From NCBI GenBank assembly GCA_028871055.1, contig JAGWON010000001.1, positions 186,001-250,000 of the forward strand: DNA of 64,000 bases, in the 5' to 3' direction. A program made the translations under genes and the position numbers. Shown here piece by piece: positions 19,649-26,281 of the stretch. Under the pieces are notes generated by a model, which saw only the letters and a program-made list of their open reading frames with translations, ran no database searches and was not told where the DNA came from. The stretch's first letter is position 1; each line of letters begins with the position of its first letter. This DNA comes from Alphaproteobacteria bacterium (GTDB lineage Bacteria > Pseudomonadota > Alphaproteobacteria > ATCC43930 > CGMCC-115725).

Positions 19649-20029
19649 CGCGCCTCTATAGCCGATTGCGGCCGGTGCTGCCGCCGCGGCCGGCGACAGG
19701 GCAAACGAGTATGGTTAACTTAACCATAAGTAACCATATTAACTATACTTTTCGTCTAATTAACCAATACTTTGAATTGCTTTTGCCTCTTGGTGAAAAT
19801 ACTTTCACCGTCGAAGAAAAAGACCGAAACAGGTCTGTCGTTCAGGAAGGAAGTTCGAAGCCCGCGGAGTCGTGTCTCCGCTGGTCCCCTCCCGGCAGGT
19901 GCCCTCCGCGGCGCTCCGGACTCCTTCTTCGATAGGCCTCTTCGGTCGCTGCGGCGGCTGCGGATCGACCCTTTCCTCCCAGGGGTCCATCCGCGGACCG
20001 CTCGCAAACCGGGACACGGAGAGGTTGCG
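19649..20029 (+). promoter_or_regulatory. Regulatory region and long leader of the giant repeat protein
   Basis: This 381-base gap begins with an AT-rich island (about 19705-19800) containing several TTAACCA-type boxes. It continues as a GC-rich leader of over 200 bases with the hairpins AGACC-gaaaca-GGTCT (19821-19836) and GCGGAG-tcgtgt-CTCCGC (19864-19881). It ends with a GGAGAGG ribosome-binding site before the ATG at 20030. I found no riboswitch class that fits. Confidence 0.55.
19711..19767 (+). promoter_or_regulatory. Cluster of CtrA-like TTAACCAT boxes
   Basis: The palindrome ATGGTTAA-c-TTAACCAT occupies 19711-19727, giving one TTAACCAT on each strand. GTAACCAT at 19730-19737 and TTAACCAA at 19760-19767 follow. 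TTAACCAT is the known half-site preferred by the alphaproteobacterial cell-cycle regulator CtrA. In such GC-rich DNA this clustering is unlikely to be chance, though CtrA itself is not encoded in the window. Confidence 0.5.
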
Positions 20030-23000
20030 ATGAAAGTTTCGATCCGGACTTTGGCCAGGCACTCGGCGGCGGCGATCGCCATTCTGGCGCTGATGGATGG
20101 CGCGGCGTTCGCAGGCAGCCAGATAACGCCAAACCCGAATCCGGCGGCCGCCACGATCACGCCCAACAACGGCGATTTCAACGCCAGCAACCCCTACACC
20201 AACCTGGGCAAGATCCAGATCGAGAACAGCGGCGCGGGCGCAGTCACCTTCACCAACAACGGCGGCGCCACCATCGACAACACCGGCACCGGCGGCGCCG
20301 GCACGCCGGGCGACGGTGAGATCGACACGTTCGGCGGCGGCACCTTCGACAATGTCGGCACGGTCAATTCGACGAGCGGCGCCTTCATCACCACCGACGG
20401 CGGCCAAGGCCCGAATCGGGGCAGCGCCGCGCTCAACAACAGCGGCACCATCGTCAACGACGCGAGCAAGCTGAACAACCAGACGACCACACCGGGCGTC
20501 GGCATCTCCAGCCAGCTCAACAACACCGGCTCGATCACCAACCAGGACGGCGGCACGCTCACCAACAACGCCAACGGCAATGCCGGCGCGACCTCGACCC
20601 TGACGCAGGGCGCGGTCATCACCAATTCGGCCTCGGGCTCGCTCACCAACACCGGCACCGGCACGACCTTCACCAACGAGCTCGCCGGCCTCTTCAGCAA
20701 TGCCGGCACCTTCATCAACGAGTTGGCGGCGCACTTCGTCAACACCAACGCCAACACCGTCTGGGATAACACCGGCACGACCATCAACATGGGCGCGGGC
20801 ACGCAGATCCAGAACCAGAACGGCGCCGCGGTCACCAACGAGGGCCAGATCCTCAACATGCTCGGCGCGCTGTTCCACAACGACGCAACGTCGAGCATCA
20901 CCAACAACGGCACCGGCGCGGCCATCTTCAACATGACCAGCGGCAGCACGCTGCAGAACGACGGTCAATTGACCAACGAGAACGGCGCCCAGGTCTACAA
21001 CGAGGCGCACGGCACGCTCAACAACACCGGCACGCTCACCAACGAGACCAACGGCCAGGTCTATAACCAGGGCGGCGGCACGCTCAACAACAGCGGCACC
21101 TTCAACAACGCGGCGCAAGCCTATAACCAGGGCGCCTCGACCTTCGCCAATACCGGCACGCTCACCAACAACGGCACCAGCGCCCAGTTCACCAACCAGG
21201 GCGCCTCGACGCTGACCAACACCAACGCCATCACCAACGAGAACGGCGGCACGCTGTCGAATCTCGGCGTCGGCACGCTCCTCCACAACGAGGCGGGCGG
21301 CTCGCTGACCAACGACGGCACGGGTCTGTCCACGACGACCGTCACCAACAATCAGGCGACGATCACCAACGACTCGGGCGCGGCCATCGACAACAAGGGC
21401 GGCAACGCCAAGTTCTTCAACCAGAACGGCGGCCAGGTCGGCAACGCCGGGACTCTGACCAACGAGGTCGGCGCGCAGCTCACCAACGAGGATGCGGGCA
21501 CCGCGATCACCAACACCGGCGCGATCAACAACCAGACCGGCGCGAGCTTCAGCAACCTCAACGGCGCGGCGATCGCCAACAACGGCACCGGCACGATCGC
21601 CAACTCCGCCACGTTCACCAACGACGGCGCCGCGACCACGATCACGAACAGTAGCACCCATTCGACGAGCGGAACGCTCGATGGCATCGCCAACACCGCT
21701 GGCGGCGTCTTCACAAACCAGAACGGCGCGACCATCACCAACAACAGCGGCAGCGGCATCCTCAACGACGCCTCGACCTTCACCAACAAGCTCGGCGCGC
21801 TGGTCGACAACAAGGGCACCGTCACCAACCGCGACGGCGGCACGCTGCAGAACCTGAGCACCGCGACCCTGCATAACGAGTCGGGCGCGATCCTGACTAA
21901 CGACGGCAGCGTGTCCACCACCACGCTCCTCAACGACAACGCAACCATCACCAACGGCGGCACGCTCACCAACACCGGCGCGCACGCCCAGTTCACCAAC
22001 CAGGATCACGCCACCTTCACCAACCAGCTCGGCGCCACGTTCAACAACCTGCTGGGCGCGACATTCCTCAACGATCCGAGCTCGGTCGTGAATGCCGGCG
22101 CGATCGTCAACTCGGGCGGCTCGACCATCACCAGCGACGGCCTGGGCTCGACCTTCGACAACACGGCGACCGGCACCATCGACAACACCGGCACGGGCTC
22201 GACCATCACCAACCAGAACCAGTCGGTGATGACCAACGAGCACACGATCACCAACGAGAACAGCGCCGTCCTCGCCAATGTCGGCGGCACCAACGGCGCG
22301 ACCTTCAAGAACCAGTCGGGTGGCACCATCACCAACCAGACCGGCGCGGCGATCGACAACATCGGCACCGGCGCGGGCGTCGCGAACTTCACCAACGACG
22401 CCTCGACCATCAACAACAACGCGACGGCGTTGATCGACAACAAAGGCTCGAACGCTCAGTTCTCGAACCAGAACGCCGCGACCGTCACCAATCACGGCAC
22501 CCTGACCAACGAGATCGGCGGCCAGTTCACCAACCAGAGCGGCTCGACGGTCGACAACTTCGCCGGCCTCGTCAACGAGACCGGCGGCCAGTTCGTGAAT
22601 ACCGGTGCCGGCACGCACCTCACCAACGAAATCGGCGGCACCGTCACCAACGACGGCACCGGCACCAAGCTGTGGAACAAGCTGTCGGCGCTGGTCACCA
22701 ACCTCGGCTCGATGTTCAACCGGAACAGCGCCACGCTGCAGAACGACTCGACGTTGGCGAACAATGGCGGCACGCTCACGAATCAAACGGGCGCCACGCT
22801 GAACAACACCGGCACACTCAACAACACCAACGTCGCGACGCTCACCAACGACAACGCCACGGTCAACAACAGCGGCACGCTCACCAACGACGACAGCACG
22901 GTGAACAACCAGAACAGCGCCGCGTTCAACACCAGCGGCACGCTCACCAACAAGGACGGCGGCACGGTCAACAACACCACCGGCGCGACCATGACAGTCC

Positions 23001-26000
23001 AGACCGGCGGCCTGGTCACCAACGACGGCACCGGCCTGTTGTCGACCCAGATCGTCAACGACAACGCCAACTTCGTCACGCAGTCGGGCTCGACCGTCAA
23101 CAACAACGGCGCCAAGGCCGCGTTCACGAACCAGAACGGCGCCGTCGCCACCCTCAACGGTGCGTTCAACAACACCAACGGCGCGCACTTCACCAACGAT
23201 CCGTCGACGGTGACCAACAACGGCGCCTTCACCAACAGCGGCGGCTCGACCGTGACCAACTCCGGCCTCGGCTCGACCTTCACCAACAGTTCGACCGGCA
23301 CCTTCGACAACACCGGCACGGGCTCGACGCTGGTCAACCAGAACCAGGCAACCTTCACCAACAACGGCGCGCTCACCAACGAGAACAACGCGTCGATCCA
23401 GAACCTCGGCGGCACCACCGGCACCACCACCTTCTCGACCAGCGGCGCTGGCGCGACGCTCACCAACCAGACCGGCGCCACCATCCTCAACAACGGCACC
23501 GGCGCGGGTACCGCCCACTTCAACGTCGCGAGCGGCGGCACCCTCACCAACGCCGCGACCTCGGGCGGCATCACGAACGAGGGCACGAACGGCCTGTTCC
23601 ACGTCCACTCGGGCGGCGTGCTCGACAACTTCGGCGCCATCCTCAACAAGCTCGCCGGCACCTTTGAGAACTTCCTCGGCGGCACGGTCGACAACAACGG
23701 CGCCAGCGCGTCGATCACCAACAACGCCTCAACGCTCACCAACGCCGGCGGCTTCACCAACGAGAACAGCGCTCAACTCGTCAACCAGAACGGCGCGACG
23801 CTCAACAACACCGGCACGCTCTCGAACCAGACCGGTGCGACCATCACCAACGACGCCACCAGCACGATCGCCAACAGCGGACCGGGCGTCATCACCAACA
23901 TGACCGGCGGCGGCGCGATCACCAACAACGGCACGATGACCAACGCGTCGGGCGGCAGCGTCGTGATCCAGTCGGGCGCGGTGTTGAACGGCACCGGCAC
24001 CTATACCCAGTCCGGCCCGACCAGCAACACCACGGTCAACGGCACCTGGACGCAAGGGCTCACCAACCTGACCGACGGCAACCTCAACGGCTCCGGCACG
24101 GTCAACGGCCCGCTCTATAACGACACGCCGTCCGGCACGGGTCCGGGCGTCACCGGCACCGGCGGCGGCATCACCCTCACCGGCCCGGTCGCCGGCACGG
24201 GCAACTACGCCGGCATCGTGAACTTCACCGGCAGCTTGTCGCCCGGTTCGCCCTTCGCCAGCCCGGTCGTCAACAACAACAATCCGGACGTGACCGGTGG
24301 CACCTTCACGCCCAATCCGCTGCCGAACTATCCGCTCGGCACCGGCTCGGCGGCGCTGATCACCAGCACCGGCACGATGAACTTCGCGTCCAGCAACACG
24401 CTTTACCTGGACGTGATGGGCGCGACCCGCGGCACGCTGTACGACGCGATCAACACCGCCAACGCCAACCTCGGCGGCACGCTGACGCTCGTTCCGACCA
24501 TTCCGGGCGCGGTCGCCGGCAGCTATGACTTCATCCACTCGGGCTCGGGCGGCATCGCCGGCGACTTCAACCTCGCCCAGATGCTCAACCTCGGCAACGG
24601 CAGCGACCTCTATCTCTCCGGCCGCAGCGTGACGTCGACCGACTACACCGCGACTCTCGCGAACTTCGGCAACGGCGTGCAGAACACTTTCAGCCAGATC
24701 GGCGGCAACGGCGCTCCGGGCGGCAATCCTGGCCTCAGCGTCAGCCCGTCGCTCACCACCGCGACTTCGGGCCTGACCTTTGCCGAAGGCGGCAACGGCG
24801 GCAACGACGGCAACGGCGGCAACGGCGGCAACGCCAGCGCGACCAACGTCGTCACCGGCTCCGGCAATTCCTTCGCCATCGCCAACGCCGGCAACGGCGG
24901 CGACGCCAGCGGCGTCGGCAACGGCGGCAACGGCGGCAACGCCCTCGCCAGCTCGACGATGCAGGGCGCCACCGGCTCGGCCAACGCCACCTCGACTGGC
25001 GGCAATGGCGGCCTCGGCACCGGCGGCGGCAACGGCGGCAACGGCGGCAACAGCAGCTCGACCGCGACCGCTATCAACGCCACCGGCGACGTCACCACCA
25101 ACGCGACATCGACCGGCGGCAACGGCGGCAACGCCACCGGCGGCGGCACGGGCGGCAATGGCGGCAATGCCACTTCGACCTCGACCGCCCAGACCAGCGG
25201 CGGCGCCAACACCGCGACGGCCAATGCCACCGCGACCGGCGGCCAGGGCGGCTCGCCGAGCGGCGCCGGCGGCACGGCCAATGCCACGGCGAACGCGACC
25301 AACACCGGCCTCGCTCCGGCCGCGGTCGGCGCCCATGCGCTCGCGACATCCTTCCGCAACACCGCGACCGCGACCGCCACGGGCAACGGCCTCAGCGGCT
25401 CGCTCTCCAACACCCTGTTGGACGGCCAGGGCAATACGCTCCGCACCATCACCGGTGTCGGCTCGATCGCCAACGCCACCACCGACGGCGCCAACGCGTC
25501 GCCCAACACGCCGTCGGTCGAGGCCTCCGGCTCGGCCACCATCGGCAGCACGGCGACTTCGTTCAGCCAGACCACCTACGGCCAGAACGTCTCGACCACG
25601 GCACCGATCTCACCCTTCAGCCAGGTCAACCCGATCCCCGACAACAGCTACACCCTGGGCAACCTGAACCCGACCGGGCTCAACGCCGGCTTCTATGCGG
25701 CCAATCCGGCGGCGAACTTCGCCTTCAACAACGGCGGCGCCTCGGTCATCGCCTCCGGCCTCTTGGGTGTGGGTGCGACGAGCGCGATCTCGACCCCGCA
25801 CACCTACACTTCGTCCCTCACCTTCACCGATACCGGGGCGAACGCGGCGGGCCGGGACGTGGTCGTCAGCCTGCTCAACAACGGCAGCTCGGGCTACGCC
25901 GGCGCAACCTTCGGCACGCTCGAGTTCTACCTGACCGAGTCGGGCAAGGTGGGCAAGCTGTTCGACCAGACCTTCACCACCCTGGCCAGCGCCCTCACCG

Positions 26001-26281
26001 CCCTCGACAACGTCAACTACAATCTCGGCACGGTGTCCGGCAGCGGTCTGTTCGACGTGACCGCCAACCTGGTGTTCGATACCTCGTCGTTCAGCGGCTT
26101 CCAGACCAGCCTGCTCTACGGCTACACCACCTCGGTGCCGGAGCCCGCGACCTGGCTGCTGTTCGGCAGCGGCCTGCTCGGCCTCGGCCTCTTGGAGATG
26201 CGTCGCCGGCGCAAGTTGCCGGCCGGCGCGGCCCAAGGCGCCGACAAGGACGCCGGCGGCGCGGACCGGATGGCCGCGTAA
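20030..26281 (+). CDS. Giant Asn/Gly/Thr repeat protein with PEP-CTERM sorting signal
   Basis: The 2083-residue product starts with a signal peptide (AIAILALMDGAAFAG). From about residue 50 to 1330 it is built of short repeats around NxGTLTNxxG, N/T/G-rich and suited to a parallel beta-helix. A less regular part follows (to about 1580), then a GGNGGNGGNAS-type stretch (about 1584-1760), then a globular C-terminal part. It ends VPEPATWLLFGSGLLG plus RRRRK, a PEP-CTERM tail recognised by exosortase. It should be a large exported surface or matrix protein. ATG 20030 is chosen for its GGAGAGG site and signal peptide; the frame stays open another 258 bases upstream. No exosortase gene is in the window. 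Confidence 0.88.
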   Translation: MKVSIRTLARHSAAAIAILALMDGAAFAGSQITPNPNPAAATITPNNGDFNASNPYTNLGKIQIENSGAGAVTFTNNGGATIDNTGTGGAGTPGDGEIDTFGGGTFDNVGTVNSTSGAFITTDGGQGPNRGSAALNNSGTIVNDASKLNNQTTTPGVGISSQLNNTGSITNQDGGTLTNNANGNAGATSTLTQGAVITNSASGSLTNTGTGTTFTNELAGLFSNAGTFINELAAHFVNTNANTVWDNTGTTINMGAGTQIQNQNGAAVTNEGQILNMLGALFHNDATSSITNNGTGAAIFNMTSGSTLQNDGQLTNENGAQVYNEAHGTLNNTGTLTNETNGQVYNQGGGTLNNSGTFNNAAQAYNQGASTFANTGTLTNNGTSAQFTNQGASTLTNTNAITNENGGTLSNLGVGTLLHNEAGGSLTNDGTGLSTTTVTNNQATITNDSGAAIDNKGGNAKFFNQNGGQVGNAGTLTNEVGAQLTNEDAGTAITNTGAINNQTGASFSNLNGAAIANNGTGTIANSATFTNDGAATTITNSSTHSTSGTLDGIANTAGGVFTNQNGATITNNSGSGILNDASTFTNKLGALVDNKGTVTNRDGGTLQNLSTATLHNESGAILTNDGSVSTTTLLNDNATITNGGTLTNTGAHAQFTNQDHATFTNQLGATFNNLLGATFLNDPSSVVNAGAIVNSGGSTITSDGLGSTFDNTATGTIDNTGTGSTITNQNQSVMTNEHTITNENSAVLANVGGTNGATFKNQSGGTITNQTGAAIDNIGTGAGVANFTNDASTINNNATALIDNKGSNAQFSNQNAATVTNHGTLTNEIGGQFTNQSGSTVDNFAGLVNETGGQFVNTGAGTHLTNEIGGTVTNDGTGTKLWNKLSALVTNLGSMFNRNSATLQNDSTLANNGGTLTNQTGATLNNTGTLNNTNVATLTNDNATVNNSGTLTNDDSTVNNQNSAAFNTSGTLTNKDGGTVNNTTGATMTVQTGGLVTNDGTGLLSTQIVNDNANFVTQSGSTVNNNGAKAAFTNQNGAVATLNGAFNNTNGAHFTNDPSTVTNNGAFTNSGGSTVTNSGLGSTFTNSSTGTFDNTGTGSTLVNQNQATFTNNGALTNENNASIQNLGGTTGTTTFSTSGAGATLTNQTGATILNNGTGAGTAHFNVASGGTLTNAATSGGITNEGTNGLFHVHSGGVLDNFGAILNKLAGTFENFLGGTVDNNGASASITNNASTLTNAGGFTNENSAQLVNQNGATLNNTGTLSNQTGATITNDATSTIANSGPGVITNMTGGGAITNNGTMTNASGGSVVIQSGAVLNGTGTYTQSGPTSNTTVNGTWTQGLTNLTDGNLNGSGTVNGPLYNDTPSGTGPGVTGTGGGITLTGPVAGTGNYAGIVNFTGSLSPGSPFASPVVNNNNPDVTGGTFTPNPLPNYPLGTGSAALITSTGTMNFASSNTLYLDVMGATRGTLYDAINTANANLGGTLTLVPTIPGAVAGSYDFIHSGSGGIAGDFNLAQMLNLGNGSDLYLSGRSVTSTDYTATLANFGNGVQNTFSQIGGNGAPGGNPGLSVSPSLTTATSGLTFAEGGNGGNDGNGGNGGNASATNVVTGSGNSFAIANAGNGGDASGVGNGGNGGNALASSTMQGATGSANATSTGGNGGLGTGGGNGGNGGNSSSTATAINATGDVTTNATSTGGNGGNATGGGTGGNGGNATSTSTAQTSGGANTATANATATGGQGGSPSGAGGTANATANATNTGLAPAAVGAHALATSFRNTATATATGNGLSGSLSNTLLDGQGNTLRTITGVGSIANATTDGANASPNTPSVEASGSATIGSTATSFSQTTYGQNVSTTAPISPFSQVNPIPDNSYTLGNLNPTGLNAGFYAANPAANFAFNNGGASVIASGLLGVGATSAISTPHTYTSSLTFTDTGANAAGRDVVVSLLNNGSSGYAGATFGTLEFYLTESGKVGKLFDQTFTTLASALTALDNVNYNLGTVSGSGLFDVTANLVFDTSSFSGFQTSLLYGYTTSVPEPATWLLFGSGLLGLGLLEMRRRRKLPAGAAQGADKDAGGADRMAA

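What the first reader, a model, noticed from the sequence alone, without database searches (positions are those of the whole stretch)
20030..26281. 2083-residue Asn/Gly/Thr repeat protein ending in a PEP-CTERM signal
The product consists mostly of short repeats around NxGTLTNxxG, then a GGNGG-type tract, a globular part and VPEPATW plus helix plus Arg-rich end. PEP-CTERM proteins are known mainly from exopolysaccharide-producing Gram-negative bacteria with exosortase. One this large and repetitive in an alphaproteobacterium-like genome may be a beta-helical matrix fibre or adhesin. The composition is so narrow that ordinary homology searches would miss relatives.
Basis: partly seen in the sequence, partly recalled or inferred. 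Interest (0 to 1): 0.62.

Follow-up and report, generated by a model that had tools for sequence, protein, structure and literature searches.

The report
Giant beta-helix PEP-CTERM matrix fibre
This gene encodes a very large, repetitive secreted protein that an exosortase probably installs at the cell surface as part of the bacterium's sticky polysaccharide coat; its parts are each of a familiar kind, but their combination, and the conserved RNA leader in front of the gene, look unusual.

Summary
In detail: window 20030-26281 (+) encodes 2083 aa with a signal peptide, about 1,270 residues of N/G/T repeats, a 270-residue non-repetitive cap, a GGNGG tract, a C-terminal domain and a PEP-CTERM signal above Pfam's cut-off. 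The same genome has an XrtA exosortase inside a complete XrtA-type exopolysaccharide locus plus PrsR, and AlphaFold2 models the tested part of the repeats as a regular three-sided beta-solenoid whose best PDB matches are autotransporter passengers (Ag43, TibA, Vag8). Two congeners carry syntenic orthologs with shorter repeat regions (1764 and 1706 aa). A third lacks both this protein and XrtA. Two proteins from another genus keep the cap, glycine tract and PEP-CTERM end but carry a different N-terminal repeat. The GGNGG tract is modelled as a polyglycine/polyproline-II bundle like a springtail antifreeze protein (Z 13.8). I also found a strongly conserved, structured 215-nt leader and an AT-rich repeat shared with the upstream region of another PEP-CTERM gene. 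Most likely this is an exosortase-sorted, exopolysaccharide-associated beta-helical surface fibre. Location, function and sorting were not tested. New variant of a known kind; moderate interest.

The parts
19720..19772 (+). AT-rich block with three imperfect copies of TTAACYATWACTT (19720, 19739, 19760); possible promoter/operator region
   Evidence: Three matches with up to 2 mismatches in 64 kb, all here; expected 0.08. An exact match to TTAACYANWACTT also lies about 92 nt upstream of the 63-aa PEP-CTERM gene (L004). One sigma-70-like site overlaps, 19720-19749.
19812..20029 (+). Conserved, structured RNA leader (5' UTR), two long hairpins ending at the Shine-Dalgarno region
   Evidence: 87-88% identical in two congeners, 96-99% over the first 84 nt, against 60-76% at third codon positions of nearby genes. 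Folding z -5.5 on the + strand and -2.0 on the - strand. The first hairpin is predicted in all three species. No Rfam family above threshold.
20030..20113 (+). Signal peptide, residues 1-28 (MKVSIRTLARHSAAAIAILALMDGAAFA)
   Evidence: Sequence: basic start, hydrophobic core, AFA end; conserved in congeners. No signal-peptide predictor was available.
20150..23920 (+). N/G/T-rich repeat region, residues about 41-1297: predicted three-sided parallel beta-helix
   Evidence: Periodicity. AF2 model of residues 852-1569. PDB matches Ag43, TibA and Vag8. Residues 41-851 were not modelled.
23921..24736 (+). Conserved cap domain, residues 1298-1569
   Evidence: 46-83% identical across five proteins of two genera. 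No Pfam family in any member. Its C-terminal two thirds are modelled at pLDDT below 50.
24737..25339 (+). GGNGG tract, residues 1570-1770: predicted polyglycine/polyproline-II bundle with intervening strands
   Evidence: pLDDT mostly 76-93. VIA-align to 7jjv_B (springtail antifreeze protein) Z 13.8, rmsd 2.2, 122 of 126 residues aligned.
25340..26131 (+). C-terminal domain, residues 1771-2034, fold undetermined
   Evidence: The last ~264 residues of the protein (this domain plus anchor and tail) are 81-83% identical in congeners. AF2 pLDDT about 25-40 over most of it, so no fold can be read.
26132..26278 (+). PEP-CTERM sorting signal (VPEPATW, hydrophobic helix, RRRRK) and 24-residue tail, residues 2035-2083
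   Evidence: PF07589 and TIGR02595 above curated cut-offs.

Best explanation
The protein is a substrate of the genome's XrtA exosortase. It is exported by Sec, held in the inner membrane by its PEP-CTERM helix, cut at the PEP motif by XrtA, and handed to the cell surface or exopolysaccharide matrix. There, about 60 coils of beta-helix (roughly 28 nm) on a cap and a stiff polyglycine-II segment act as a structural fibre or adhesin. Shown: gene, repeats, sorting signal, XrtA locus and PrsR, conserved architecture, repeat-number change between species. Predicted by model: beta-helix, glycine bundle. Inferred: cleavage, surface location, adhesive or matrix role, length in nm.
For: PEP-CTERM above cut-offs. 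XrtA in a locus with EPS export protein, chain-length determinant, tyrosine autokinase, TIGR03016 outer-membrane protein, polysaccharide deacetylase, TIGR03087 glycosyltransferase and flippase; Cys, NxxR and HxxxG motifs are in the XrtA sequence. PrsR 665 bits against a cut-off of 502.6 on the same contig. All five family genomes with the cap have XrtA; the congener without XrtA lacks the protein. No Cys in 2083 residues and a Thr/Asn-rich composition, as described for PEP-CTERM proteins (PMC1569441). Best fold matches are surface autotransporter passengers. A PEP-CTERM protein is involved in floc formation elsewhere (PMC9850573).
Against: 24 residues follow the PEP-CTERM model region. Haft et al. 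report a median of three, 87% under ten, and suspect long-tailed examples may be non-functional; congeners have similar tails. No sigma-54 promoter was found above background, unlike many proteobacterial PEP-CTERM genes. The model rests on two sequences and covers only about one third of the helix region. No experiment supports cleavage, location or function.
Confidence: 0.72

Rival explanations
1. It is a self-associating adhesin that works like Ag43: neighbouring cells' beta-helices zip together, and the polysaccharide plays little part.
For: Best Foldseek matches are Ag43 (E 4.5e-7), TibA and a 'self-associating protein'; VIA-align Z 19-22 for these.
Against: The fold class is shared with many unrelated beta-helices (Z 14-18 for lyases and tailspikes), so fold does not fix function. 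There is no autotransporter barrel, and the anchor is the exopolysaccharide-linked XrtA system.
Confidence: 0.15
2. It is an ice-binding or surface-water-ordering adhesin: the GGNGG bundle binds ice as the springtail antifreeze protein does.
For: The only strong structural match of the tract is a springtail antifreeze protein, Z 13.8, rmsd 2.2.
Against: Polyglycine-II sandwiches are also proposed for PE_PGRS proteins, which have no link to ice (PMC10216338). One shared fold shows no function; no ice-binding face was identified. In one congener the tract is much shorter, 4 GGxGG against 10.
Confidence: 0.05
3. It is a decaying or non-functional repeat ORF kept by chance.
For: Low-complexity sequence; long tail after the PEP-CTERM.
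Against: Open over 2083 codons here and over 1764 and 1706 in congeners with the same architecture. The C-terminal part is 81-83% identical, with third codon positions at 73-75% and second positions at 88-92%, the pattern of purifying selection.
Confidence: 0.03

Closest known systems
PEP-CTERM/exosortase A (XrtA) substrates (PF07589, TIGR02595), such as the floc-related PepA protein
   Same: Signal peptide, C-terminal PEP-hydrophobic-Arg signal, no Cys, Thr/Asn-rich, XrtA exopolysaccharide locus and PrsR in the genome, single gene after a large intergenic region.
   Different: A predicted solenoid of about 1,270 residues, a 24-residue tail after the signal, no sigma-54 site found. The paper library held no paper with both 'PEP-CTERM' and 'beta-helix'.
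Self-associating autotransporter passengers (Ag43, TibA) and Vag8
   Same: Predicted right-handed three-sided beta-helix; best matches among solved structures.
   Different: 12-17% identity, no barrel domain, exosortase anchor instead.
Polyglycine-II / polyproline-II bundles: springtail antifreeze protein (7jjv) and PE_PGRS domains
   Same: GGX triplets; the model superposes on 7jjv over 122 residues.
   Different: Here a 165-residue module inside a giant fibre, with intervening strands of 7-10 residues; function unknown.

Membership tests
PEP-CTERM proteins (XrtA substrates) | C-terminal PEP motif, hydrophobic helix, basic end | tested here: met
   PF07589 22.4 bits against 20.7; TIGR02595 19.9 against 16.
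PEP-CTERM proteins (XrtA substrates) | Cognate exosortase in the genome | tested here: met
   XrtA TIGR03109, 287 bits against 208.
PEP-CTERM proteins (XrtA substrates) | N-terminal signal peptide | tested here: inconclusive
   Read by eye from the sequence and its conservation; no predictor was run.
PEP-CTERM proteins (XrtA substrates) | Signal lies at the extreme C-terminus (few residues after it) | tested here: inconclusive
   24 residues follow; this is outside the usual range given in PMC1569441 but conserved in congeners.
PEP-CTERM proteins (XrtA substrates) | Cleavage by the exosortase | not testable with these tools
   Needs an xrtA deletion and proteomics.
PrsR/sigma-54-regulated PEP-CTERM genes | -24/-12 sigma-54 promoter upstream | tested here: not met
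   Best site scores 6 of 10, a score that 248 sites in the window have. The response regulator PrsR itself is present.
Autotransporters (type Va) | Beta-helix passenger | tested here: met
   By model only.
Autotransporters (type Va) | C-terminal beta-barrel translocator | tested here: not met
   No barrel family in Pfam or NCBIfam; the protein ends in PEP-CTERM.
Polyglycine-II bundle proteins | Antiparallel GGX helices packed in layers | tested here: inconclusive
   Model superposes on 7jjv at Z 13.8; helix geometry was not measured and no experiment exists.

The most novel reading that the evidence does not exclude
A lineage-restricted family of exosortase-anchored giant fibres built on a fixed chassis (cap, polyglycine-II stalk, C-terminal domain, PEP-CTERM) onto which different N-terminal solenoids are exchanged, expressed from a PEP-CTERM regulon with its own AT-rich operator and, in this genus, a conserved structured RNA leader that controls translation.
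Probability: 0.3. Interest if true: 0.6.

Novelty: new variant of a known kind. Interest (0 to 1): 0.42.

Why it matters
PEP-CTERM proteins are widespread in environmental bacteria and have been tied to floc formation, yet I found no published beta-helix model for one. This one gives a concrete and testable architecture: a solenoid fibre on a stiff stalk, released by an exosortase. The chassis with exchangeable solenoids offers a clean way to ask what the cap and stalk do. The conserved leader, if confirmed, would add an RNA layer to PEP-CTERM control.

Tried and rejected
Pfam and NCBIfam on the whole protein gave only the anchor. Sequence search of the PDB with the protein gave nothing; with the cap profile only chance hits. 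The beta-sandwich-like matches to the C-terminal domain (Z about 6, including TasA) were discarded because that part of the model has pLDDT about 25-40. The viral structure library gave nothing usable. A sigma-54 promoter was rejected. No Rfam family fits the leader. The cap is not in the plasmid collection, nor beyond the own family in 385 genomes of the class except one weak partial hit. An empty-site comparison in congener G034 failed because the flanking M23 gene has only a 48% relative there. The longer TTG start at 19772 was rejected because the leader is not conserved as protein. Covariation of the leader could not be tested with three sequences. The cap's resemblance to autotransporter caps is a recollection and was not confirmed.

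Full report
What is there. Window 20030-26281 (+) encodes 2083 residues without interruption. A signal peptide is followed by about 1,270 residues dominated by Thr, Asn and Gly, then a 270-residue non-repetitive stretch, a GGNGG tract, a C-terminal domain and a PEP-CTERM signal. Both public models of the signal score above their cut-offs. The repeat is degenerate: Asn and hydrophobic residues recur every 6 to 9 residues, with Asn autocorrelation peaks at 8, 14 and 22. One block is duplicated at a distance of 375 residues, 59% identical over 100 residues. The GGxGG count is about ten times that of shuffles.

The sorting system. The genome (G000, 33 contigs, 99% complete) has one exosortase, of the XrtA class, fused to an EpsI domain. 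Its neighbours are the XrtA-type export protein, chain-length determinant, tyrosine autokinase (just under its cut-off), TIGR03016 outer-membrane protein, deacetylase, TIGR03087 glycosyltransferase and a flippase. The XrtA sequence holds the Cys, NxxR and HxxxG motifs (motifs as given in PMC1569441). PrsR is on the same contig. Four further loci reach a PEP-CTERM cut-off, but one of these, at C19:269022, has its PEP motif in mid-ORF and may be two genes or a misread start.

Relatives. Of 39 family genomes searched, two congeners hold orthologs of 1764 and 1706 aa in the same gene order. The length difference lies mainly in the repeats and partly in the glycine tract. One of these congeners appears in the public collection as an Alphaproteobacteria MAG, isolate REEB11. 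Two genomes of another genus hold proteins of 3421 aa and at least 2098 aa (the second is cut by a contig end) that share the cap (46-52% identity), a glycine tract and a PEP-CTERM end, but whose N-terminal part is a quite different AQSIGGGGG-type repeat. All five have XrtA, 11 of the other 34 do, and congener G034 has neither this protein nor XrtA. The five come from two genera, so this is suggestive only. The cap was found nowhere else in 43 genomes of the order, 385 of the class (one weak partial hit) or the plasmid collection.

Structure. Only two sequences could be used per model. For residues 852-1569 the solenoid part has pLDDT 85-96 over about 180 residues and mostly 60-90 elsewhere, with a strand every 6-8 residues. 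Foldseek's eight significant matches are Ag43, TibA and a related self-associating protein; VIA-align puts Vag8 first, Z 24.7. Most of the cap is below pLDDT 50. For residues 1570-2083 the glycine tract has pLDDT mostly 76-93. A second look at Foldseek's list aligns residues 1593-1757 with a springtail antifreeze protein, Z 13.8, rmsd 2.2, while the next row has Z 6.5 and covers another part. Foldseek itself did not rank this match as significant. Similar folds are proposed for PE_PGRS proteins (PMC10216338). I read the tract as a polyglycine-II bundle, as a prediction. The C-terminal domain is not modelled reliably.

Upstream of the gene. The roughly 215 nt before the start codon are 87-88% identical in two congeners and 96-99% over the first 84 nt, while third codon positions of nearby genes are 60-76% identical and the intergenic part further upstream 73-79%. 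The + strand folds far better than shuffles (z -5.5) and the - strand much less so. The long hairpin is predicted in all three species. It occurs once per genome in these three. Only two pairs show changes on both sides, so covariation does not yet support it. In the own sequence the last stem includes the Shine-Dalgarno region, which suggests translational control (inference). Before it lie three AT-rich repeats, and an exact copy of the motif lies upstream of the smallest PEP-CTERM gene. A one-mismatch copy lies ahead of the XrtA exopolysaccharide operon. The motif was derived from this promoter, so a genome-wide test is still needed.

Interpretation. The simplest account is an XrtA-sorted, exopolysaccharide-associated beta-helical fibre. 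A PEP-CTERM protein is involved in floc formation in another bacterium (PMC9850573), and PEP-CTERM proteins were proposed as protein components of the extracellular material (PMC1569441). Conserved ends with a variable repeat number fit a structural or adhesive role better than an enzyme. The 24-residue tail and the missing sigma-54 site depart from the usual pattern. Each module is of a known kind; the combination and the leader are what is new.

Noticed in passing
19812-20029: A structured RNA leader more conserved than the nearby coding sequence, not in Rfam, one copy per genome in three congeners.
   Followed up: partly
19720-19772; L004:1289-1301; L007:1161-1173: AT-rich motif TTAACYANWACTT repeated upstream of this gene, exact upstream of a 63-aa PEP-CTERM gene and with one mismatch ahead of the XrtA exopolysaccharide operon: possible common operator.
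   Followed up: partly
L026:5432-15694 and L027:7152-13445: Giant PEP-CTERM proteins of another genus with AQSIGGGGG repeats on the same cap and anchor; the same genome G013 has a further PEP-CTERM match in a 2581-residue open frame (C1:101334).
   Followed up: partly
L040:718-2121: One ORF of 467 aa reads signal peptide, PEP-CTERM motif in the middle, then a second signal-like stretch and TPR repeats: probably two genes read as one, or a misread start.
   Followed up: no
L004:1393-1584: A 63-residue PEP-CTERM protein with almost nothing between signal peptide and anchor (a short Gly-rich stretch).
   Followed up: no
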